Below, piece after piece: positions 983-18,234 of a DNA stretch of 45,818 nt. Origin of the DNA: Ignavibacteria bacterium (lineage in GTDB: Bacteria > Bacteroidota > Ignavibacteria > Kapaibacteriales > Kapaibacteriaceae); NCBI GenBank assembly GCA_013204605.1, contig JABMNI010000019.1, positions 1 through 45,818 of the forward strand, given 5' to 3'. The notes under the pieces were generated by a model. It saw only the letters and a program-made list of their open reading frames with translations, was not told where the DNA came from and ran no database searches. The position numbers and the translations under genes are program-made. Within the stretch, counting starts at the first letter, position 1, and each line of letters begins with the position of its first letter.

Positions 983-3900
983 TTATTTCAAAGCATCTAC
1001 AAGCAAGGCGTTCTGTTCCATTTCATGCAGTTTACCTGATCCTGTAGCGGGACTGGCCGCAGCTGAACGTCCGGCATAGCGAAGTGTTTGACCAGGCATC
1101 AGTATATTTTGAATGTTAGGTTGAACTGTGTACCAAGCTCCCATGTTGTGAGGCTCTTCTTGACACCAAACAACCTCCTTGCAATTCACAAAAACAGACA
1201 AAATCTCTTCCATCAATTTTGAATGGAACGGGTAGATTTGCTCCAATCGTATCAACGCAGTATCCGTCAATCCTAACTCCTGCCGCATCTTCTGCAATTC
1301 GAAGTATACCTTTCCGGTCGAGATAACAATTCGCTTTACGTCTTTCACAGATGTGATAGAATCGTCCTGCAGTACCTCCTGATATTTACCAGTTGTCAAA
1401 TCTTCAACAGTCGACGACAAAATCCTCAGATATCCTTTCGGCGTCATTATAACTAATGGTTTACGCCATTCCGCTTTAACCTGTCTTCGAATTGCATGAA
1501 AATAATTCGCCGGCGAAGTAAAGTTGCAAACAATCATATTGTCCTGCGCACACATTTGTAAGAACCGCTCTAAACGAGCGCTGGAGTGTTCCGGACCCTG
1601 TCCGTCATATCCATGCGGCAGCAACAAAGTAATATTAGACCGCTGACCCCATTTTTCTTCAGCACTTGATACAAACTGGTCAAGAACGATTTGCGCCCCG
1701 TTCACAAAGTCACCAAATTGCGCCTCCCAAATCGTCAGACCACCTTTTGCAATTGTGCTATACCCGTACTCAAATCCTAGTACAGCATATTCACTTAACG
1801 GCGAATCGTATATATGGAAAGCCCCTTTACCATCAGCCATTCTACTAATAGGAATCATTCGTCGCTCATTTACAATGTCATTCTGTACAGCTTGCCGGTG
1901 ATTGAACGTGCCGCGTCCAGTGTCTTGACCCGTAATTCTAACAACGTGACCATCGTTTATCAAGGAAGAAAACGCCAATGCTTCGGCAATACCCCATTGT
2001 GCCAAGCCTTCGGCAAACTGAGCCTGACGCTTTGTAACTTCCGAGTGGACTTTGGGATGAATTGAGAAACCTTCGGGCACGTAGCTGAGCTGCTCAACAT
2101 ATTTCGAAAGTTTCGAGAGTGACACCTTTGTCTCGTACTGTTCAAACATGTCATACTCTAGCCGACTAACATTTGTAACATGCTCACCACCGCCGCGATT
2201 ATCGTACGCGTTTTGTAGTACCAGTTGTTCTTGATCTATTATCGAGTTTACCCCTTCGGTAGTCAAAACTTTTTCGGCTACTAACCTTTGTCCATACAGT
2301 TTTCTGACCGGCTTCATTTGCTTGATTCGCTTATACAACAGTGGTTGCGTAGCCGTTGGATCGTCTTGTTCGTTGTGACCGTATTTACGGTAACAATACA
2401 TATCGATCACCACATCGTCTTTAAACGCCTCTCTATACGCAAACGCGAATTCTGTGGCAGCTCTACAGGCTTCTGGATCGTCTCCGTTCACGTGCAAAAT
2501 TGGTACTTGGAGCATTTTTGCAATGCCAGTGGAATAATGCGTGGATCTTGAATCCTCAGGCGAGGTAGTAAAACCAATTTGATTATTAATTACAATGTGG
2601 ATAGTGCCGCCAGTAGAATACCCGCGCAAACGAGCCAAGTTTAGCGTCTCCATTACTACACCCTGGCCGGCAAAAGCCGCGTCACCATGTATCAAAATCG
2701 GCAGCACTTGCGAATGCGTTGCGTCTTCAATCTCATCTTGCAACGCCCTAGCAATTCCCTCAACCACGGGGTTTACCGCTTCAAGATGACTCGGATTTGG
2801 CGCGAGAAACATTGCAATTCGATTGTTAGATCTTGAAACATACGTTCCGCGAGCACCAAGATGATATTTCACATCGCCCGATCCCTGATAACTTTCCGGA
2901 TCAAACACTCCTTCAAATTCCTTGAATAATTTTTCAAGGGGCTTTCCAATCATGTTAACTAGAACGTTTAGTCTGCCGCGATGGGCCATGCCTAAAACCA
3001 CTCCTTGCAAGCCCGTTTCCGCAGCTTGTTCAAGTACGTGGTCCAAAATAATCAGGGCCGACTCTCCGCCCTCTATCGAAAATCTTTTTGCGCCTAAAAA
3101 TCTGGTTTGCAAAAAGTTCTCTAATAAATCTGCACGAGTTAATTTCTTAAACGTGTCAATCTTGACTTCTTCACTTGTGTTGACTTTTAGGTGAGTTTTT
3201 TCAGCGTACTTTCTTACCCATTCTTTTTTATCCGGGTCTTGTATATGCATGAATTCAAGACCGATCTGATCGCAATACGTATCTCTTAGCATGTCAACAA
3301 TGTCACGTAATGTGGCTCGAGTAACTCCCCCTAAGCCCCCTGTATCGAATTCCCTGTCTAGGTCCCAAATTGTAAAGCCGTAATGAGCCGGTTCTAGTTC
3401 AGGATAGTGATACGCTTCTAGTCCGAGTGGATTAACGTCGGCAAGTAAATGACCCCGCACTCGATAGGCGTGGATCATTTGAATGAGACGAACTTCCTTG
3501 TCTATTTCGTTGTGAACATTTTGAGGGTTGAACGGGTTCTTGCCCTTCTCAACCGTCCACCGAACTGGGTTGTACGGAATTTCAAATGCAGCGTAAATAA
3601 TGTCGTAAAACCTATGCTCACCCAAAAGGTATTGCGCCAGAGTTTGTAAGAACTCTCCCGATTCGGCACCCTGGATAATACGGTGATCATAGGTCGACGT
3701 TAGCGTAACAACCTTTGATACCGAAAGCATTGAAAGCACATCGGGCATCATTGCCTGAAACTCCGCCGGATAGTCTATGGAGCCTGCAGCGATTATAGTT
3801 CCCTGACCTTCCATTAGGCGCGGGACAGACATTACGGTACCAATCATTCCGGGGTTCGTAAGCGTTACTGTGGCGCCGGACAAATCATCGGGCGTTAGTT

Positions 3901-4576
3901 TATTCTTGCGAGCTTTGTCAATAAGATTGTCGTACGCTGTTACAAATTCAGCGAAGTTTAACGTGTTGGCGTTCTTGATTGAAGGAACTAGAAGTATTCG
4001 ACTTCCATCCTTGCGAATAGTGTCTACCGCAAGTCCTAAGTTCACCCTACCGCGTTGTACCTTTACATGAACACCGTCATGGAAACCGTATGTGTTATTC
4101 AAGTTTGGAAACTTGTCAAGCGCCTTAACTATAGACCACGCCAGGATATGCGTAAAGCTCAATTTCTTTTGGCGTCTTCGGGCCATAACAGAATTTAAGA
4201 TTCGACGATTTTCCTCGAGGGCTTTTACAGGAACCACTCGCGCCGAAGTTGCCGTAGGAACATTCAACGAATGTTGCATATTCTCGGCTATCAAACTACC
4301 AATCGACGACAACGGAATCAACTCATCGCCATCTAAGACCGAGGGCATGCGTGTGGATTCAGAAACAGACTCACGTTGCGGAGCCGCGGTAATACTATTG
4401 CTGGCAAGAACGTTTCCAACAGTTGCAGAAGCTGGCTTGCTTTCCTTGCCTATTCCCGTGGGATTTTCAGGAGTGTAGGTTTTGAAAAACGAATGCCATT
4501 CGGTCGAAACAGAATCAGGGTCGCGCAGATACTCGAAATACAATTCATCAATATATGCGCTGTTCATCGACATCAT
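983..4576 (-). CDS. kgd: Multifunctional 2-oxoglutarate dehydrogenase (fused E2 acyltransferase-E1)
   Basis: A 1197-residue TCA-cycle enzyme of the mycobacterial KGD type, which decarboxylates 2-oxoglutarate with thiamine diphosphate and carries a succinyltransferase domain on the same chain. In order: a short N-terminal OGDH segment (DELYFEYLRDPDSVSTEWHSFF, cited as residues 11-32 by key positions Y, F, W); a linker; an E2 catalytic domain at about 95-320 with the acyltransferase motif DHRIIQG near 296; the E1 region from about 370, with the TPP motif GDAAFAGQG near 630 and HNEQDDP downstream; and a C-terminal transketolase-like part ending near 1190. There is no lipoyl domain, as in the KGD family. 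It is the last gene of the comEC-pgeF-kgd group, 59 bases after pgeF. ATGs at 4576, 4573 and 4567 are all possible starts and no clear Shine-Dalgarno chooses between them. Confidence 0.93.
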   Translation of the reverse strand: MMSMNSAYIDELYFEYLRDPDSVSTEWHSFFKTYTPENPTGIGKESKPASATVGNVLASNSITAAPQRESVSESTRMPSVLDGDELIPLSSIGSLIAENMQHSLNVPTATSARVVPVKALEENRRILNSVMARRRQKKLSFTHILAWSIVKALDKFPNLNNTYGFHDGVHVKVQRGRVNLGLAVDTIRKDGSRILLVPSIKNANTLNFAEFVTAYDNLIDKARKNKLTPDDLSGATVTLTNPGMIGTVMSVPRLMEGQGTIIAAGSIDYPAEFQAMMPDVLSMLSVSKVVTLTSTYDHRIIQGAESGEFLQTLAQYLLGEHRFYDIIYAAFEIPYNPVRWTVEKGKNPFNPQNVHNEIDKEVRLIQMIHAYRVRGHLLADVNPLGLEAYHYPELEPAHYGFTIWDLDREFDTGGLGGVTRATLRDIVDMLRDTYCDQIGLEFMHIQDPDKKEWVRKYAEKTHLKVNTSEEVKIDTFKKLTRADLLENFLQTRFLGAKRFSIEGGESALIILDHVLEQAAETGLQGVVLGMAHRGRLNVLVNMIGKPLEKLFKEFEGVFDPESYQGSGDVKYHLGARGTYVSRSNNRIAMFLAPNPSHLEAVNPVVEGIARALQDEIEDATHSQVLPILIHGDAAFAGQGVVMETLNLARLRGYSTGGTIHIVINNQIGFTTSPEDSRSTHYSTGIAKMLQVPILHVNGDDPEACRAATEFAFAYREAFKDDVVIDMYCYRKYGHNEQDDPTATQPLLYKRIKQMKPVRKLYGQRLVAEKVLTTEGVNSIIDQEQLVLQNAYDNRGGGEHVTNVSRLEYDMFEQYETKVSLSKLSKYVEQLSYVPEGFSIHPKVHSEVTKRQAQFAEGLAQWGIAEALAFSSLINDGHVVRITGQDTGRGTFNHRQAVQNDIVNERRMIPISRMADGKGAFHIYDSPLSEYAVLGFEYGYSTIAKGGLTIWEAQFGDFVNGAQIVLDQFVSSAEEKWGQRSNITLLLPHGYDGQGPEHSSARLERFLQMCAQDNMIVCNFTSPANYFHAIRRQVKAEWRKPLVIMTPKGYLRILSSTVEDLTTGKYQEVLQDDSITSVKDVKRIVISTGKVYFELQKMRQELGLTDTALIRLEQIYPFHSKLMEEILSVFVNCKEVVWCQEEPHNMGAWYTVQPNIQNILMPGQTLRYAGRSAAASPATGSGKLHEMEQNALLVDALK

Positions 4577-7071: not shown

Positions 7072-8154
7072 ATGAGTACAGAAGCAAAAACTTCAAAAGC
7101 GGAAAGCAAAAATAGCAGCGCTGGAGAACCGAAAATTGATGCAGCGAAAATGAAAGCTGCTCAATTGGCGATTGAGCAAATTGAAAAGGCACATGGTAAG
7201 GGATCGATAATGCGTTTGAGTGACGAGAACGTTGCAAACGTTGAAGCGATTTCGACCGGATGTTTATCACTTGATGCCGCTATTGGCATAGGCGGAGTGC
7301 CGCGAGGTCGAATTGTGGAAATTTATGGTCCGGAGTCTTCAGGAAAGACAACAGTTTGTTTGCAAGTCATAGCCGAAGCACAACGTTCAGGTGGACTTGC
7401 CGCCTTTGTTGATACTGAGCATGCACTTGACATTCAGTATGCACAGCGTTTGGGTGTTGACCTAAATAATTTGCTTTTGTCTCAGCCCGAATTTGGTGAG
7501 CAAGCGTTGGAAATTGTTGAGACGCTGGTGCGATCTGGAGCAATTGACGTAGTTATTATTGACTCGGTGGCAGCTCTTACTCCGCGTGCGGAAATCGAGG
7601 GTGATATGGGCGACGCACAAATGGGCTCGCAGGCGCGTTTGATGAGTCAGGGTATGCGGAAATTGAATGCAGCAATTGGAAGGTCTAACACTACAGTAAT
7701 CTTTACCAATCAACTGCGGTCGAAGATTGGTGTTGTGTATGGAAATCCCGAAACCACTACCGGTGGTAATGCACTGAAGTACTACGCATCAGTGAGAATC
7801 GACGTTCGGCGTAAAGATGTAATTAAAGACGGAACGGAAATTATCGGAAACCGCGTTCGAGCAAAAATTGTTAAAAACAAGGTTGCTCCCCCATTCCGCG
7901 AAGCCGAGTTTGACATTTTGTATAACGAAGGCATTTCTCGACTTGGAGACATGATTGATATCGCCGTAGAGCATTCAGTTATTGCTAAGTCTGGGTCTTG
8001 GTTTACGTTCAAAGAGGAACGAGTTCAAGGTAGAGATGGAATGCGTAAGCTAATTTCTGAGAGTCCAGCACTAATGGCAGAGCTTGAAGCCGAAGTGAAA
8101 AATATTCTTCACATTCCGTCAAAGAGCTCGGGCTCCAAAAACGGCAAGGCTTAA
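7072..8154 (+). CDS. recA: Recombinase RecA
   Basis: A 360-residue RecA, the ATP-dependent strand-exchange protein for recombination, SOS induction and transformation. A short charged N-terminal tail (first 25 residues) precedes the core. Walker A GPESSGKT lies near residue 86, [21 protein letters not shown] near 158 contains Walker B (cited by its VIIDS), and the RecA signature is [14 protein letters not shown] near 235. AAGGA ends about seven bases before ATG 7072, a good ribosome site. No clear LexA-type box was recognised upstream. A frame encoding RecX follows 18 bases downstream. Confidence 0.98.
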
Positions 8155-8172: not shown

Positions 8173-10347
8173 ATGGCGAACGTAATTACGTCGATTAAGC
8201 AGAACGTTAAAAACAAAAACCGCTGCTCAGTTTATGTGGATGGAGAGTTTTTTCTAGCGTGCCATTTTGATGTTATGAATGCGTTCGGGTTGAAAACTGG
8301 GGTGGAGATTTCATCCGATGTTGAACGGGAGCTTCGGGCTGCCGATTACGCTATTAAACTCAAGCAAAGATTGTACGGCTTCGTGACGTATAAGCCTCGC
8401 ACTGAAAAACAAGTTCGAGATTATTTGTTAAAACACGAAGCCGCACCCGAAGAGTGTGAACGGCTAATTGCATGGTCGATAGAATTCAAGTTGCTCGATG
8501 ATGTGGCCTACGCCACGAATTTTATCGACGCCACAAAAAGCCAAAAGCCAATGTCAGCCGCTGCCATCCGTCAAAGGCTGCGCGGTAAAGGAATCCCCTC
8601 CGACATAATAGATGCAGCAATAGAAAATCAACTTACAAACGATGATGTATTTCATGCTGCACTGGCCGTTGCTGAACGAAAAATGAAGATTCTGAAGAAA
8701 ATGGAGAATAAGGATGTACAGATTAAGTTGAATCAATTTTTACGTTACCGTGGATTTGATTGGTCTACAATCAAACAAGTTGTTTCGCAGTTGTTTGTTT
8801 TTCTGTTTGTTTGTGTAGCACTGTTTTTTGGCGCGGCGCAAATTCTAGGGGCTCAGGTTCAGTCTCAATCCGCTTGCTTTAAAGTGCGACTCGACGAGTC
8901 CATTAACCGATATCAACCCACAACCATTCCAGTACTTTCTGCAGACGGAGTTTTGTATTTGGACAGAAAACTGCACCCGCAAAACCGAGATGGTACACAA
9001 GATGTTGATGAAATATGGTCATCAAGTTTGACTTCGAATGGTCGTCATTCCGAAGCTGCTATTGCGAATGTTTCATCTTTTCGACAACCGGACGTGCTGT
9101 TCAATTTTTCCTCCGACGGCTTGGAGGCTTTGGTTGTTGGTGACTATTCATACAATGGTAGCGATAGCGTGGCATGCTTTGCTATTATAAAAAGAACATC
9201 ATCGCAAGGAAAATTCGACAAGGTTGAACCGATCGTAATTCCTGGTATGTCGAGACTCTCATCGAACTACTACGGCAATTACAACAAGGAATTGAACGTA
9301 ATTATATTGGCGTTGGAAACCAAGAATGGACTTGGCGACTTGGATCTCTATTTCACCACGTTGTGCAATGGCAGATGGACCCCGCTATTGTCACTCGGCC
9401 CAAGCATCAACACGTCATTCTCGGATGCCTCACCGTGGTTGGCTCCCGATGGCAGGTCATTGTTCTTCGCGTCAAACGGGCGCAGTGATAAACGCGGCAA
9501 ACTTGACCTATATGTTTCCAAACGAATCGGCGAGGGTTTTCAGAGCTGGACAGCACCCGTTAATCTTGGGGCGTGCATTAATACTGTGGAAGACGACTCT
9601 TTCTTGTCCCTCTTTGGGAAGTCTGATTCGGCAATGATTACATCCTGGGACGCCGTATCAGGCCGACCCGGCGTGTACAAAATCTTAGTGCCATACGAGG
9701 TTCAACCGTTACCCACATGCAAATTCACCGCAAAAATCATTGATGCGCAAACCGGGAATCTCATTCCTCATGCCTATGTAACCTTGTCGGAAAAGAGAGA
9801 AAACAAGTCACCAATTCAATGTGAGTTGCCCAGATTTTCTATCGACGAAGCCACGACCTTTGCGTACTCCGTGCTACGTGAAAACAACACGTACTACATT
9901 GTCACACACGCCGACGGCTACGCTTCGCATAAGCAAACGGTAGGCGTGCGAAATCTAGATTCAACCACCGGAGTACATTTAACCATTAGACTGTTTAAAA
10001 CTGATGCACCACTTGGCTCAGTTTTTTTTGAAATGGGCTCGGCAGTCCCCTCTTCAGAACAAATAGAATTGCTTCGGAAATTGGTGGATAGTTATAAAAT
10101 TCGATCTGTGAAATTCAAAGTAACTGGTTACACAGATCAAATTGGAACCGTTCCGTTAAACTCAACTCTGTCATTTAAAAGGGCAGAAGCAATAAAACAG
10201 TTGCTGATAGCCTTTGGATTACCGTCGTCAAGTATAACAGCAGTTGGAAAAGGAATTGAGAATCCGGGCGTGTTTACAGGGCTGAAAGAAAACCCACAAA
10301 GCAGACGCGTAGACATTTTCCCCAGTTCCGCGTCGATCGAAGAATAG
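8173..10347 (+). CDS. RecX fused to an exported PD40/OmpA-like protein
   Basis: One continuous 724-residue frame with two unrelated halves. Residues 1-205 are a complete RecX, the small cytoplasmic RecA modulator, with the helical repeats YKPRTEKQVRDYL, FKLLDDVAYATNFID and the typical ending FLRYRGFDWSTI. It is in the classical position right after recA. The frame then runs without a stop into a hydrophobic stretch (VFLFVCVALFFGAAQILGAQ, about 207-226) that looks like a signal peptide. After it come PD40-type beta-propeller repeats (DASPWLAPDGRSLFFASNGR; TFAT-like repeats absent) at about 240-510 and a carboxypeptidase-like beta domain at about 520-610. An OmpA C-terminal peptidoglycan-binding domain fills 615-720 (GSVFFEMGSA, VTGYTDQIG, NPQSRRVDI). 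The second half would normally be a separate envelope protein. A separate TTG start near 8790 is possible, but no ribosome site is visible. Confidence 0.88.
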   Translation: MANVITSIKQNVKNKNRCSVYVDGEFFLACHFDVMNAFGLKTGVEISSDVERELRAADYAIKLKQRLYGFVTYKPRTEKQVRDYLLKHEAAPEECERLIAWSIEFKLLDDVAYATNFIDATKSQKPMSAAAIRQRLRGKGIPSDIIDAAIENQLTNDDVFHAALAVAERKMKILKKMENKDVQIKLNQFLRYRGFDWSTIKQVVSQLFVFLFVCVALFFGAAQILGAQVQSQSACFKVRLDESINRYQPTTIPVLSADGVLYLDRKLHPQNRDGTQDVDEIWSSSLTSNGRHSEAAIANVSSFRQPDVLFNFSSDGLEALVVGDYSYNGSDSVACFAIIKRTSSQGKFDKVEPIVIPGMSRLSSNYYGNYNKELNVIILALETKNGLGDLDLYFTTLCNGRWTPLLSLGPSINTSFSDASPWLAPDGRSLFFASNGRSDKRGKLDLYVSKRIGEGFQSWTAPVNLGACINTVEDDSFLSLFGKSDSAMITSWDAVSGRPGVYKILVPYEVQPLPTCKFTAKIIDAQTGNLIPHAYVTLSEKRENKSPIQCELPRFSIDEATTFAYSVLRENNTYYIVTHADGYASHKQTVGVRNLDSTTGVHLTIRLFKTDAPLGSVFFEMGSAVPSSEQIELLRKLVDSYKIRSVKFKVTGYTDQIGTVPLNSTLSFKRAEAIKQLLIAFGLPSSSITAVGKGIENPGVFTGLKENPQSRRVDIFPSSASIEE

Positions 10348-10382: not shown

Positions 10383-12347
10383 CTACGAAATCTCTATACT
10401 GGCAACGGCCTTAAAGCCCCCACTGCGTTGCTCTTCCACTTTTATCTGCCACCATTCGGCTGCATGGACGTAAATAGATGCCTGCAATCTACTTCGCCAC
10501 TCAAACCCTTCGTTGTGGAACGTTGAGTTAATCATTCCGGCATCTGAAGTAATCATCACGTTTCGTTGCACGTTGCTATTATCTACTAGCAACAATAAAA
10601 TTTTCTCGTCATCCTTTAATTCCCTACGTAACCAAATTGTTATTCTTTGCCAATCATCCTGGGTTTCAATCTGAGCCTGGTTGCACGCCGCATTGGCATC
10701 GTGCATTGAACCCGTTGCAAAGACAATCGGAACAACATTGGCCGTGCTAACGTTGTTGTTTTCAGAAAGTGGATACTGAAGTGCTACACCAGGCATTATG
10801 CGAGTATTTTCGAAAATGAACCGCAAGTGGAGTCGGAACATTTCATCGAACTTGGTTTTATGTGGTGCTATATGTTGGTCATGATACCACCAAAACCAAT
10901 CCGAAGCTTCTAGAATCATTAGTCTGGTATGTAGTTCATCTAACAACGGACTCTTCGTGGATGAAACGGCAAGACCTGCCACTGCATCATGGGCTTCCTT
11001 CAATAAACTCCAGGCAACATTCTTTACCTCCGTACCTATCCATACTCCAAAGTCGCCATTAATCCACGAGCCAGGGACTATCTTACGCAGCTGACGTTTT
11101 GCGTTCGAGTTCACAGCTTCAGAACAAGTAACTGTCTGAAATCGTGCGTTGTTGGACAAGCGTTCAAACAACGAGCGCAAGAATGGTTCACCATTCCCTT
11201 CATAAAATTCCCAGCAATTTTCACCGTCCAGAAAAATCGGAACCACTGCATCAGAAAGCACACTCTCGCCGTAATTCATAACCAGAATTCTACGCCGCTC
11301 TTCTAACCTTCGTATAAAATCGTCCGCCGCTACCTCCGAATCCCAACCCGAATATTCAAATCCAATTGCATCGCTCAAAGAATGATCCCTGAATAACAAT
11401 GCAATATCTCCGTGTTCAGTTGAATGCACATATGGAAAGTAGGTGCTGGTTTCATCCCATTCATCACCTAGTGACTTTCGCAAAACAGCTTCATCGCTCG
11501 CCGTCCACTTTATACCGTGCTCCGCAAGTAAACCAACCGACGCAGAACTAATAGCACCTTCGGCGCTCCACATGCCAGCAGCCGGTTTCGGGGAATGCTC
11601 GTTCCAAAACTCTATGGCCTTACCAACTTGCCTACGCGCGGCCTTGGGATTGCGGAGCGGCGGCTGAGGAGCTGTTGACAATGGATTCGACTCAATTGCA
11701 GCATCAGTATCAATCAACAACGGAAGTATAGGATGGTTATACGGCGTTATACTCACTTCCACATTTTCAGTTTTCTGAACATCATTCAGCGCCGGCATAA
11801 AACTCTTGCACAAACGCAGATGTTCGTCAAGAATCAACGCCACATCGCTTGCAGTAAAGTCTTTCGTTTGCAAAAGCATTTTTGAAAGGGGCTTACTTGC
11901 ACGCCTAGCAATCGGGCCAATCCAAGCAAGGTTGAACATTGCCTTAAGGTTAGTGACATCCTGGGTTGTTAACGTTACGCTAGGCGCTTCCAAACAGTCC
12001 GACCAAATAGATCGCAGTTTTGGAAAGGGGCTCACCATGGTTTTGAATTGCAATGTCCGGCACCACTCCAACAACTCATCTTGCAAATCCAAGGTGAAGT
12101 GCTCGGAAGGAATTGCACACAATTCTTGTACCCGATCCATAAAGCCCCTTTCATAACTTTCAAGTTGTGAAATGAGGGTTGGAACTACATTGATTGTGTG
12201 TTTGAGCGGGTAACTCTGGATTATGTGAAGGAGATCAGTGTAATCCTTGGCGGCATGCAACCGCACCCAGGGAAGAAAGAACTCTCCATCTACGCGATAG
12301 TCGGGCTGGTGCTGATGCCACAAGAAACAAATTCGCAGAGGTTGCAT
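10383..12347 (-). CDS. Glycoside hydrolase family 57 protein
   Basis: A 654-residue GH57 enzyme, a family of alpha-amylases, amylopullulanases and 4-alpha-glucanotransferases acting on starch or glycogen. No signal peptide is seen, so it is probably cytoplasmic and acts on glycogen or maltodextrins. GH57 marks are the N-terminal LWHQHQPDY near residue 9, GMWSAEGAIS near 258 (the nucleophile Glu region), and FLDGENCWEFYEGNGEPFL near 370. A C-terminal beta domain contains the end of the chain. Length fits the family. The substrate cannot be told from sequence alone. It lies between the RecX-OmpA gene (convergent, 35-base gap) and tmRNA. Confidence 0.9.
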   Translation of the reverse strand: MQPLRICFLWHQHQPDYRVDGEFFLPWVRLHAAKDYTDLLHIIQSYPLKHTINVVPTLISQLESYERGFMDRVQELCAIPSEHFTLDLQDELLEWCRTLQFKTMVSPFPKLRSIWSDCLEAPSVTLTTQDVTNLKAMFNLAWIGPIARRASKPLSKMLLQTKDFTASDVALILDEHLRLCKSFMPALNDVQKTENVEVSITPYNHPILPLLIDTDAAIESNPLSTAPQPPLRNPKAARRQVGKAIEFWNEHSPKPAAGMWSAEGAISSASVGLLAEHGIKWTASDEAVLRKSLGDEWDETSTYFPYVHSTEHGDIALLFRDHSLSDAIGFEYSGWDSEVAADDFIRRLEERRRILVMNYGESVLSDAVVPIFLDGENCWEFYEGNGEPFLRSLFERLSNNARFQTVTCSEAVNSNAKRQLRKIVPGSWINGDFGVWIGTEVKNVAWSLLKEAHDAVAGLAVSSTKSPLLDELHTRLMILEASDWFWWYHDQHIAPHKTKFDEMFRLHLRFIFENTRIMPGVALQYPLSENNNVSTANVVPIVFATGSMHDANAACNQAQIETQDDWQRITIWLRRELKDDEKILLLLVDNSNVQRNVMITSDAGMINSTFHNEGFEWRSRLQASIYVHAAEWWQIKVEEQRSGGFKAVASIEIS

Positions 12348-15328: not shown

Positions 15329-15925
15329 ATGCAACAAGAAGACCAGCTTTTAATAGATCGACTTAAGAACGGCGACGGAACAGCGTTAACGTTCCTCGTT
15401 GGTAAGTATCGTACAAAAGCTATTTCAACGGCACTTAGAATGGTAAAAGACAAGATGTTAGCCGAGGAAGTTGTTCAAGATTCGTTCAGTAAGGTGTATC
15501 GAAACATAAAATCGTTCAACGGTGAATCAAGTTTTTCAACTTGGTTTTTTCGAATTGTTTACACCACCTCGTTGAATTATTTACAACGGCAACGAAGAAT
15601 GCCATTGATCGAAACCTTCTCTGAAGACGAGACTGGCGAGTTCACAGAACCATCGGTGTTTACAAAACTCACGTCCGAAGAAATAGAAACAGCCATACAA
15701 TCGGAATTGAAATTAATGTCACCATTATATGCCGTCGTTATCGATCTCTTTTACGTTCAAGAATGCACCTACGACGAAATTGTGGCTATTACCGGAATGC
15801 CGTTGGGTACGGTGAAAACAAGACTGAACCGCGGGCGGAGTATTTTGAAAAACGCACTGTTACAGCAACATTCGGAACTTGTGAGTGAACACACCGATAT
15901 GAAATTGCTAGGAAGTATATCATGA
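15329..15925 (+). CDS. ECF-family RNA polymerase sigma factor
   Basis: A 198-residue group IV sigma factor that directs RNA polymerase to stress or envelope promoters. Region 2 spans about 20-90 (AEEVVQDSFSKVYRNIKSF, then STWFFRIVYTTSLNYLQR). Region 4 is at about 130-180 with the helix-turn-helix YDEIVAITGMPLGTVKTRL. There is no region 3. Its stop overlaps the next start by ATGA, so the downstream membrane protein is translationally coupled and may be its regulator. The leader carries the nested palindromes at 15243-15306. Confidence 0.93.
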   Translation: MQQEDQLLIDRLKNGDGTALTFLVGKYRTKAISTALRMVKDKMLAEEVVQDSFSKVYRNIKSFNGESSFSTWFFRIVYTTSLNYLQRQRRMPLIETFSEDETGEFTEPSVFTKLTSEEIETAIQSELKLMSPLYAVVIDLFYVQECTYDEIVAITGMPLGTVKTRLNRGRSILKNALLQQHSELVSEHTDMKLLGSIS

Positions 15926-16398
15926 AACTGACTCTACCTCAACTCTCGGATATTTTGCAAGCTGTGCAACTGGGAAAGCCCCTTACCGAATTCAATGCGC
16001 TATACGGATCCGATCTAGTACGGCAGGTTATTGAGGGTGATCAGGCTCTTAAAAAAGAAATCGTAGCTGCAACAATAGCAGAATTGGAGCTACAGGAAAC
16101 ATCAGAAAAAATTGCCGGATTGGTTTTGCAACGGAGTAAATCAGTGGAAACAAAAATACTTCGACTATCTCCCTGGATACTCTCATTCGGAGCTTTGATC
16201 TTTATCAGTGCCCTCGTGATAATTTTACCAACAGTTTCGTTCGAAGGCGTCGATGTGATTCGAAACGCACCGAACTCACTTTCCTTGGGCAGCATTCTTT
16301 CAGGTCAACAAAACCTAAGCCACCTTGCAATTCTCGTAGCCGTCGTGTTCACCATTTCATTAGCCATGTTAGCACTCGAAAAACGAAGCAACGCATGA
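15922..16398 (+). CDS. Small membrane protein coupled to the ECF sigma factor
   Basis: A 158-residue protein with a soluble N-terminal half (1-80, acidic and helical) and two hydrophobic helices, near 84-103 (ILSFGALIFISALVIILP) and 132-150 (LAILVAVVFTISLAMLAL). I recognise no domain. Position (ATGA overlap with the sigma gene) and topology suggest an anti-sigma-like or accessory role, but there is no HxxxCxxC zinc motif and this is inference. An exact copy of the repeated word lies at 15977. Confidence 0.75.
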   Translation: MKLTLPQLSDILQAVQLGKPLTEFNALYGSDLVRQVIEGDQALKKEIVAATIAELELQETSEKIAGLVLQRSKSVETKILRLSPWILSFGALIFISALVIILPTVSFEGVDVIRNAPNSLSLGSILSGQQNLSHLAILVAVVFTISLAMLALEKRSNA

Positions 16399-16429
16399 GG
16401 GATGTACCCGCCTCCCCTATCTTTGCCAG

Positions 16430-17197
16430 ATGGCATCCTTGATTGAAGTTAAAAATCTGTCGCACACGTATCCGAATGGCTTTACTGCCTTGAAAAACGT
16501 TTCCTTTTCTGTTGAAGAAGGCGAGTTTTTGGTAGTAATTGGCCTTAGTGGTAGTGGAAAGAGCACCCTGTTACGTATTCTTAACAGACTGATTGAACCC
16601 ACATCTGGCAACGTATTTTTTAAGGGGCTAGATGTAACCCGCATTGAGGGTGATGAGTTGCGTACACATCGAGGGCAAATTGGTATGATTTTTCAACACT
16701 TCAATTTGATTGGTCGGCACTCCGTGATAAGTAATGTTTTGTACGGATCACTTGGTCGCACAGGCACGCTGCAAAGTATTAGTGGTGGGTTCAGTAAACC
16801 AGACGTGCAGTTGGCGAAGGAGAGTTTGTTGCGAGTTGGGATTGCCGATAAGGCGGAAAACCGTGCCGACTCACTTTCCGGTGGACAGCAGCAACGCGTA
16901 GCCATAGCACGTGCGTTAATGCAACGTCCACGGATGTTACTAGCCGACGAGCCCGTTGCATCACTCGATCCGGCAACGTCTCATTCCGTAATGAACTATC
17001 TGGAACAGATTAATAAGGAGCAAGGAACTACCGTCATCTGCAATCTGCACTTCCTCTCGTTGGTGCGTAAATACGCTACGCGCGTGGTTGCACTAAAAGC
17101 CGGCGAGCTTGTGTTTGAAGGTAAGCCTGATGCAATTACGGAGGAGTGGTTCAAAGCGATTTATGGTGAAGATGCAATTGAAGTGGAGATCCGATGA
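16430..17197 (+). CDS. phnC: Phosphonate-type ABC transporter ATP-binding protein
   Basis: A 255-residue ABC ATPase of the PhnC type. Walker A GLSGSGKST is near residue 38; the Q-loop region MIFQHFNLIGRHSVISNVLYG near 86 (key residues QHFN, GRHSV) is characteristic of PhnC. The signature is SLSGGQQQRVA near 145, Walker B LLADEPVASLDP near 165, and the H-loop ICNLHFLSL near 202. It powers uptake of phosphonate or a related oxyanion. The stop overlaps the permease start by ATGA. No phnD binding-protein gene and no C-P lyase genes are in the window, so the substrate is uncertain. Confidence 0.9.
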   Translation: MASLIEVKNLSHTYPNGFTALKNVSFSVEEGEFLVVIGLSGSGKSTLLRILNRLIEPTSGNVFFKGLDVTRIEGDELRTHRGQIGMIFQHFNLIGRHSVISNVLYGSLGRTGTLQSISGGFSKPDVQLAKESLLRVGIADKAENRADSLSGGQQQRVAIARALMQRPRMLLADEPVASLDPATSHSVMNYLEQINKEQGTTVICNLHFLSLVRKYATRVVALKAGELVFEGKPDAITEEWFKAIYGEDAIEVEIR

Positions 17198-18234
17198 GAT
17201 CTGCCGATATGGTTGCAACTCCGAACTCCCTCTCAACTAAAGCTTTTGGATTTGTTGGCGATCTATTTATTGGCGCATACATCTTGAGTGTATTGGACCG
17301 CGTTGTTGTTCCAACCTTGGCCGACTACGTTGCATTTCCCCTGTCACCCGCTCACGCTATAGCTTACATTGTTTTCGCAATTCTATTCGCTTCCACAAGT
17401 TTGCTTATGGGGGTTTCTCTAAGCGCTGCCTTTGTTAGAAAGACTCTTCCCGACGGCATTTCGCGAAAAATCCTGACCCACATTGGATACTTTTTGTTGA
17501 GCATTAGCATCATTGCCGGTTGGATTATTACAGATGTTTCGCCTATTGAATTCTTTTCCGGTAAGGGGCTTGCTGGTGCAGGTAGAATATTTGGAGCATT
17601 GGTTACTCCTGAGTTCGACATTATTGGACAAGCCCTGGCTACCATGGTCGAGACCATTTACACGGCGTTAATGGCTACGTTGATTGCTGTACCAATTTCA
17701 TTCCTGCTTAGTTTTCCTGCAGCCCGAAATTTAATGGACGGATCGCGTCCGAAGCGTTTGATTTACTCATCGCTAAGAGTTGTGCTAAATGTTTCAAGAT
17801 CAATGGAACCAATTATTTGGGCTATTGTGTTTTCTGTTTGGGTAGGCATTGGTCCTTTTGCTGGAATGTTAGCACTGGTAGTGCATACCATAGCATCGCT
17901 CACAAAACAATACTCTGAGCAGATTGAAGATGTAGATAGTGGTCCTATCGAAGCAATTTCCGCTACTGGCGCAAATTCGATTCAAACAATTTGGTTTGCC
18001 ATTGTGCCGCAGTGCGTGATACCGTTTCTGAGTTTCACAATTTATCGTTGGGACATTAACGTACGCATGGCAACCATAATAGGGTTTGTTGGTGGTGGCG
18101 GAATAGGAACGTTATTAATTCAGTATCAGGGTCTAGCTAAATTTCACGAGGTTGGCACGTTAATAATAGTAATAACCTTTGTGGTTTGGATACTTGATGT
18201 CTTTTCAGCAAGAATTAGAGAGGCATTGAAATGA
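17194..18234 (+). CDS. phnE: Phosphonate-type ABC transporter permease
   Basis: A 346-residue inner-membrane permease. The C-terminal half holds the binding-protein-dependent transport domain with the EAA loop EAISATGANSIQTIWFAIVP (near 250) and GFVGGGGIGTLL near 290, as in PhnE. The N-terminal third has extra hydrophobic helices (near 25-45, 50-72 and 95-112). ATGA overlaps link it to phnC before it and the 99-residue protein after it. A copy of the repeated word is at 17563. No binding protein is adjacent. Confidence 0.9.
   Translation: MRSADMVATPNSLSTKAFGFVGDLFIGAYILSVLDRVVVPTLADYVAFPLSPAHAIAYIVFAILFASTSLLMGVSLSAAFVRKTLPDGISRKILTHIGYFLLSISIIAGWIITDVSPIEFFSGKGLAGAGRIFGALVTPEFDIIGQALATMVETIYTALMATLIAVPISFLLSFPAARNLMDGSRPKRLIYSSLRVVLNVSRSMEPIIWAIVFSVWVGIGPFAGMLALVVHTIASLTKQYSEQIEDVDSGPIEAISATGANSIQTIWFAIVPQCVIPFLSFTIYRWDINVRMATIIGFVGGGGIGTLLIQYQGLAKFHEVGTLIIVITFVVWILDVFSARIREALK

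What the first reader, a model, noticed from the sequence alone, without database searches (positions are those of the whole stretch)
8173..10347. RecX and a PD40/OmpA envelope protein in one continuous frame
A full RecX (residues 1-205) directly after recA continues without a stop into a signal-like hydrophobic segment, propeller repeats and an OmpA peptidoglycan-binding domain. A cytoplasmic RecA regulator tethered to the cell wall would be new. It could place recombination control at the membrane near DNA entry, which is attractive given comEC and the repeated word. Otherwise it is a stop-codon loss or an unusual overlapping start.
Basis: partly seen in the sequence, partly recalled or inferred. 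Interest (0 to 1): 0.62.

Follow-up and report, generated by a model that had tools for sequence, protein, structure and literature searches.

The report
Conserved RecX–secreted OmpA protein fusion
In one family of uncultured Kapaibacterium-type bacteria, a protein that controls DNA recombination is made as the front end of a secreted cell-wall-binding protein; the joint between them looks like a cleavable export signal, so the cell probably makes two proteins from one chain in two compartments.

Summary
The frame 8173-10347 encodes RecX (residues 1-205), a hydrophobic segment, and a PorE-like propeller/CRD/OmpA protein. It is not a lost stop or sequencing error. All 23 family genomes held were searched: of 20 readable ones, 15 have the full fusion (relatives 36-46% identical to the window's) and 2 have it without the propeller. 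Two have recX and the OmpA gene adjacent but separate; one has RecX alone. A second, probably independent fusion occurs in a neighbouring family. No other C-terminal RecX fusion was found among the RecX frames listed for about 290 class and 158 phylum genomes. An internal start is not conserved: three fused genomes have no ATG/GTG/TTG in the usable stretch. Both halves are under purifying selection, and at least nine junction length changes all kept frame. In 14 of 18 fusions the joint has a signal-peptidase-I site followed by glutamine (controls 5-17%), the Bacteroidetes 'Q-rule'. I therefore favour a precursor cut by signal peptidase: RecX stays cytoplasmic, at least briefly with a membrane tail, and the PorE-like part goes to the periplasm. 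An uncut, wall-tethered RecX is not excluded but less likely. comEC adjacency is independent of fusion.

The parts
7072..8154 (+). recA (360 aa), upstream partner, 18 nt before the fusion gene
   Evidence: Pfam RecA E=2e-132
8173..10347 (+). recX-PD40-CRD-ompA fusion gene (724 aa)
8173..8787 (+). RecX domain, residues 1-205, cytoplasmic
   Evidence: Pfam RecX_HTH1-3; matches solved RecX 3d5l, 3e3v, 3c1d; fold match to 3d5l, TM-score 0.80 by target
8791..8838 (+). hydrophobic core, residues 207-222, of an internal signal sequence; continues the last RecX helix (197-218) in the model
   Evidence: (mean Kyte-Doolittle 3.3 over the best 12 residues)
8830..8856 (+). predicted signal peptidase I sites, GAA|Q (between 8838 and 8839) and LGA|Q (between 8853 and 8854); low-confidence stretch in the model (residues 216-233)
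   Evidence: 14 of 18 fusions have small-x-small|Q here
8878..9708 (+). beta-propeller (PD40 repeats), periplasmic
   Evidence: Pfam PD40 408-448, strands in the model; the exact domain limits are inferred
9715..9993 (+). carboxypeptidase-regulatory-like (CRD) beta-sandwich
   Evidence: strands at residues 515-607 in the model; weak CarboxypepD_reg match in the split homologue of G002 and in paralogues
9994..10320 (+). OmpA-like peptidoglycan-binding domain; D655, N663, R670 kept
   Evidence: Pfam OmpA; triad motif compared with PorE Asp576/Asn584/Arg591 (PMC7192894)
5348..6913 (-). comEC-like gene (PF03772), divergent from recA; conserved neighbour in the family, fused or not
10383..12347 (-). 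GH57 glycosyl hydrolase, convergent downstream; conserved neighbour in the family

Best explanation
The gene encodes a two-compartment precursor protein. Shown by sequence: RecX is translated without a stop into an internal signal sequence and a PorE-like propeller-CRD-OmpA protein, and this arrangement is old and conserved. Inferred: the RecX domain stays in the cytoplasm, the hydrophobic segment inserts into the Sec machinery with its N side in, and signal peptidase I cuts at a small-x-small|Gln site. The PorE-like peptidoglycan-binding protein is then released into the periplasm. RecX is left with a 15-20 residue hydrophobic C-terminal tail, so it is at least transiently anchored at the inner membrane, unless an intramembrane protease later frees it. 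The single frame fixes the ratio of the two products at 1:1 and ties RecX production to export. It probably arose from a recA-recX-ompA operon whose recX and ompA genes already overlapped or nearly touched.
For: One frame in 15 full fusions plus 2 without propeller, of 20 readable genomes among the 23 held in the family. Fused state inferred ancestral in the family on a RecA+RecX tree, by parsimony. Separate fusion in G300 of another family. No in-frame ATG/GTG/TTG between the last RecX helix and the hydrophobic core in L002, L005 and L008, and no conserved start or Shine-Dalgarno elsewhere. At least 9 junction length changes, all in frame, although the junction evolves fast. dN/dS about 0.1-0.26 in both halves where dS is not saturated. 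Small-x-small|Q site in 14 of 18 fusions against 5-9% elsewhere in the same proteins and 17% in shuffles. Other predicted exported proteins of this genome also show |Q, and the Q-rule paper gives a Q-value of 77% for Ignavibacterium album (PMC5837995). Split homologues have ordinary N-terminal signal peptides at the same place. The model gives well-folded RecX and OmpA domains with a low-confidence stretch at 216-233. Peptidoglycan-contact triad kept in the full-length fusions.
Against: No protein data exist; cleavage is inferred from sequence, and no dedicated signal-peptide predictor was available. Four of 18 fusions lack the |Q, though they have small-x-small sites. A 205-residue domain ahead of a signal peptide is unusual. 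The counts across relatives are not independent of ancestry. Non-canonical starts (ATT, ATC, CTG) cannot be excluded in single genomes. The 1/3-per-change figure used for frame keeping is a rough null.
Confidence: 0.62

Rival explanations
1. The fusion is not cut: RecX is a stable single-pass membrane protein with a peptidoglycan-binding periplasmic part, a ToxR- or PknB-like layout that holds RecA control at the envelope or lets the wall signal to it.
For: One frame with a hydrophobic segment and a kept peptidoglycan-binding triad; two genomes keep the fusion although the propeller is gone. B. subtilis RecX forms foci at cell poles as well as on the nucleoid in competent cells (PMC3527212).
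Against: The junction has signal-peptidase sites followed by Gln in 14 of 18; the split homologues have signal peptides there; in the two propeller-less fusions the OmpA part is degenerate yet the |Q site is kept.
Confidence: 0.22
2. Two separate proteins from one frame: an internal start just before the hydrophobic segment makes the exported protein, and the in-frame continuation of RecX is incidental.
For: The window has a TTG at 8791, and several relatives have GTG, TTG or ATG nearby.
Against: None of these codons is conserved, none has a consistent Shine-Dalgarno, and L002, L005 and L008 have no such codon at all. Ribosomes from RecX would still read through. At least nine length changes all kept frame.
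Confidence: 0.1
3. Neutral gene fusion: joining of two tightly spaced operon genes is tolerated because each part still folds and is sorted; the fusion adds no function. (This is about selection and can be true together with the precursor mechanism of the best explanation.)
For: The adjacent genes overlap or nearly touch in f2 relatives such as G240, G251, G272 and G340. The fusion was undone or lost in G002, G008 and G005.
Against: Kept in 17 of 20 readable family genomes across deep divergence, and probably arisen twice.
Confidence: 0.35
4. Sequencing or assembly error hiding a stop.
For: The window is a single MAG contig.
Against: Same frame in 14 other assemblies.
Confidence: 0.01

Closest known systems
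RecX (recombination regulator; NCBIfam NF001058/NF010733; PDB 3d5l, 3e3v, 3c1d)
   Same: All three RecX helical domains, position directly after recA, single copy
   Different: Known RecX proteins end about where the hydrophobic segment begins here; score 120 bits against the curated cut-off of 194
PorE (type IX secretion, NF052230) and CHU_0125-type OmpA proteins (NF053607)
   Same: Propeller-CRD-OmpA order and the peptidoglycan-contact residues
   Different: PorE has a TPR domain and is a lipoprotein (PMC7192894); here RecX precedes the propeller, no lipobox was seen by eye, and the score (74.5 bits) is far below the cut-off of 600
Bradyrhizobium FbcH (cytochrome b/c1 precursor cut by signal peptidase; from my own knowledge, not found in the library)
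   Same: One gene, internal signal sequence, two products by signal-peptidase cleavage
   Different: There both products are partners in one membrane complex; here a DNA-recombination regulator is joined to a periplasmic wall-binding protein
ToxR/CadC or PknB-PASTA type transmembrane proteins (own knowledge)
   Same: Cytoplasmic regulatory domain, one membrane segment, periplasmic domain
   Different: They are not cut by signal peptidase; here a cleavage site is predicted
Bacteroidetes Q-rule exported proteins (PMC5837995, PMC10653852)
   Same: Signal peptidase I site followed by Gln
   Different: Here the signal peptide is preceded by a folded 205-residue regulator domain

Membership tests
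RecX | Three RecX helical domains above the Pfam cut-offs | tested here: met
   fold match 3d5l
RecX | Adjacent to recA | tested here: met
   18 nt after recA
RecX | NCBIfam equivalog cut-off | tested here: not met
   119.7 bits against 194 for NF001058, aligned over residues 3-208; the Pfam models are the broader test
RecX | Binds RecA and dismantles or modulates filaments | not testable with these tools
   needs biochemistry
PorE / T9SS | Propeller-CRD-OmpA with peptidoglycan triad | tested here: met
PorE / T9SS | TPR domain and lipoprotein signal | tested here: not met
   no TPR among the Pfam matches; no lipobox seen at the junction (sequences)
Signal peptidase I substrate | Hydrophobic core then small-x-small | tested here: met
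   all 18 fusions have at least 2 such sites
Signal peptidase I substrate | Gln at +1 (Q-rule) | tested here: met
   14 of 18, window included
Signal peptidase I substrate | Cleavage in the cell | not testable with these tools
   needs N-terminal proteomics

The most novel reading that the evidence does not exclude
An uncut transmembrane RecX whose periplasmic domain binds peptidoglycan, placing or tuning RecA control at the envelope, conserved in one bacterial family.
Probability: 0.2. Interest if true: 0.82.

Novelty: new variant of a known kind. Interest (0 to 1): 0.58.

Why it matters
RecX is known as a soluble cytoplasmic regulator. A family in which the only RecX found is made as the front half of an exported protein either ties recombination control to the membrane or shows that a folded DNA-repair protein can serve as a 200-residue extension of a signal peptide. 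Either case is testable in laboratory strains and would extend what is known about bacterial precursor proteins. The repeated recX-ompA pairing also hints at an unrecognised link between recombination control and the cell envelope.

Tried and rejected
Sequencing error: rejected, since 14 other assemblies agree. Conserved internal start: rejected. Further fusions suggested by long open frames: G308 and G322 are split by stops in the DNA, and G081, G143, G204, G173, G242, G391, G443 and G343 have only longer upstream frames. Lipoprotein anchoring: no lipobox seen, and the conserved Cys235 lies too far into the mature part (inspection). comEC link as evidence for a competence role: adjacency is independent of fusion. 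No full-length copy on plasmids. Literature searches found no RecX-OmpA fusion; the library is open-access papers only. FbcH precedent not found in the library.

Full report
Observation. The frame at 8173-10347 is a single 724-residue ORF that begins 18 nt after recA. Pfam places RecX_HTH1-3 at residues 68-204, PD40 at 408-448 and OmpA at 618-700. By sequence, residues 11-202 match solved RecX structures and about 609-710 match OmpA-like domains (profile positions). The AlphaFold model (mean pLDDT 84.5) gives a RecX fold (3d5l, TM-score 0.80 by target) and an OmpA fold. Its last RecX helix (197-218) runs on into the hydrophobic segment, and residues 216-233 are of low confidence. It is the only RecX in the genome.

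Not an artefact. A search of relatives and reading of the DNA show the same frame in 14 other genomes of the family at 36-46% identity; most of the named records are Candidatus Kapaibacterium or Ignavibacteria MAGs. Of the 23 family genomes held, 15 have the full fusion. Two (G004, a single-contig genome, and G011) have RecX, the hydrophobic segment, a CRD-like region and a degenerate OmpA, without the propeller. Two (G002, G008) have recX and the OmpA gene adjacent but separate. One (G005) has RecX alone. Three could not be read: G018 and G022 end at contig edges, and no recX was found in G006.

Where it occurs. In about 290 genomes of the class and 158 of the phylum, long RecX frames among the listed matches were inspected. 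Only G300, of another family (f2) in the same order, is a second true fusion. The others had upstream open frame only. Both match lists are cut, so a rare further case could be missed. G308 and G322 were reported with long frames but carry stops between the genes. In f2, recX and the OmpA gene are adjacent in at least seven genomes, with overlap or near-overlap in G240, G251, G272 and G340. The gene pair is thus older than the fusion, or was joined repeatedly.

History. On the RecX tree G300 lies away from the family (several branches there are weak). On the RecA+RecX tree the window's genome branches first within the family and is fused. A single fusion followed by three reversions or losses is the shorter account, against about six separate fusions (parsimony by inspection).

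Translation. In L002, L005 and L008 there is no in-frame ATG, GTG or TTG between the last RecX helix and the hydrophobic core, and where such codons exist elsewhere they are not conserved and rarely have a Shine-Dalgarno-like sequence. Junction length changed at least nine times on the family tree, always in frame. If changes were free, that has a chance of roughly (1/3)^9, a rough null. In the pairs where dS is not saturated, dN/dS is about 0.1-0.26 for RecX and 0.11-0.12 for the second half, while the junction evolves fast, as signal peptides do.

Sorting. All 18 fusions have a hydrophobic core followed by small-x-small sites, and in 14 of 18 such a site is followed by Gln. The same pattern occurs in 5-9% of stretches elsewhere in these proteins and in 17% of shuffled segments. 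Predicted exported proteins of this genome show the same |Q. Q at +1 is the Bacteroidetes Q-rule, and Ignavibacterium album has a Q-value of 77% (PMC5837995). The split homologues of G002 and G008 have ordinary signal peptides at this point. Cleavage by signal peptidase I is therefore the likelier fate, but it is inference.

Second half. It has the propeller-CRD-OmpA order of PorE, whose OmpA domain binds peptidoglycan through Asp576, Asn584 and Arg591 (PMC7192894). The corresponding residues are kept in the full-length fusions. The NCBIfam PorE score is far below its cut-off, no TPR was found, and no lipobox was seen, so it is PorE-like, not PorE.

Neighbourhood. comEC (divergent, upstream of recA) and a GH57 gene (convergent, downstream) are conserved in the family, including in genomes where the fusion is split or lost, and are mostly absent from the f2 loci examined. 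They do not bear on the fusion.

Verdict. A real, old, conserved gene fusion, most likely a precursor that signal peptidase cuts into a cytoplasmic, possibly membrane-tailed RecX and a periplasmic PorE-like protein. The functional benefit is unknown, and a neutral origin is a serious rival.

Noticed in passing
window 983-4576 (-): 2-oxoglutarate dehydrogenase E1 carrying an E2 acyltransferase catalytic domain at its N-terminal side, the layout I know from actinobacterial Kgd/OdhA.
   Followed up: no
L052, L053: MAG records titled Bradyrhizobiaceae bacterium and Melioribacter roseus carry family f1-type recX genes, so the titles look wrong.
   Followed up: no
L083, L084: the genome search gave open frames of 733 and 770 aa for G308 and G322 although the DNA has stops between recX and the OmpA gene.
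   Followed up: yes
L035 2440-3747 (reverse complement); L024: Two fusions without the propeller, with a degenerate OmpA part, keep the membrane segment and the |Q site.
   Followed up: partly
window 15329-18231 (+): A sigma-70 family gene, a small gene without Pfam match, and an ABC transporter ATPase and permease in a row.
   Followed up: no
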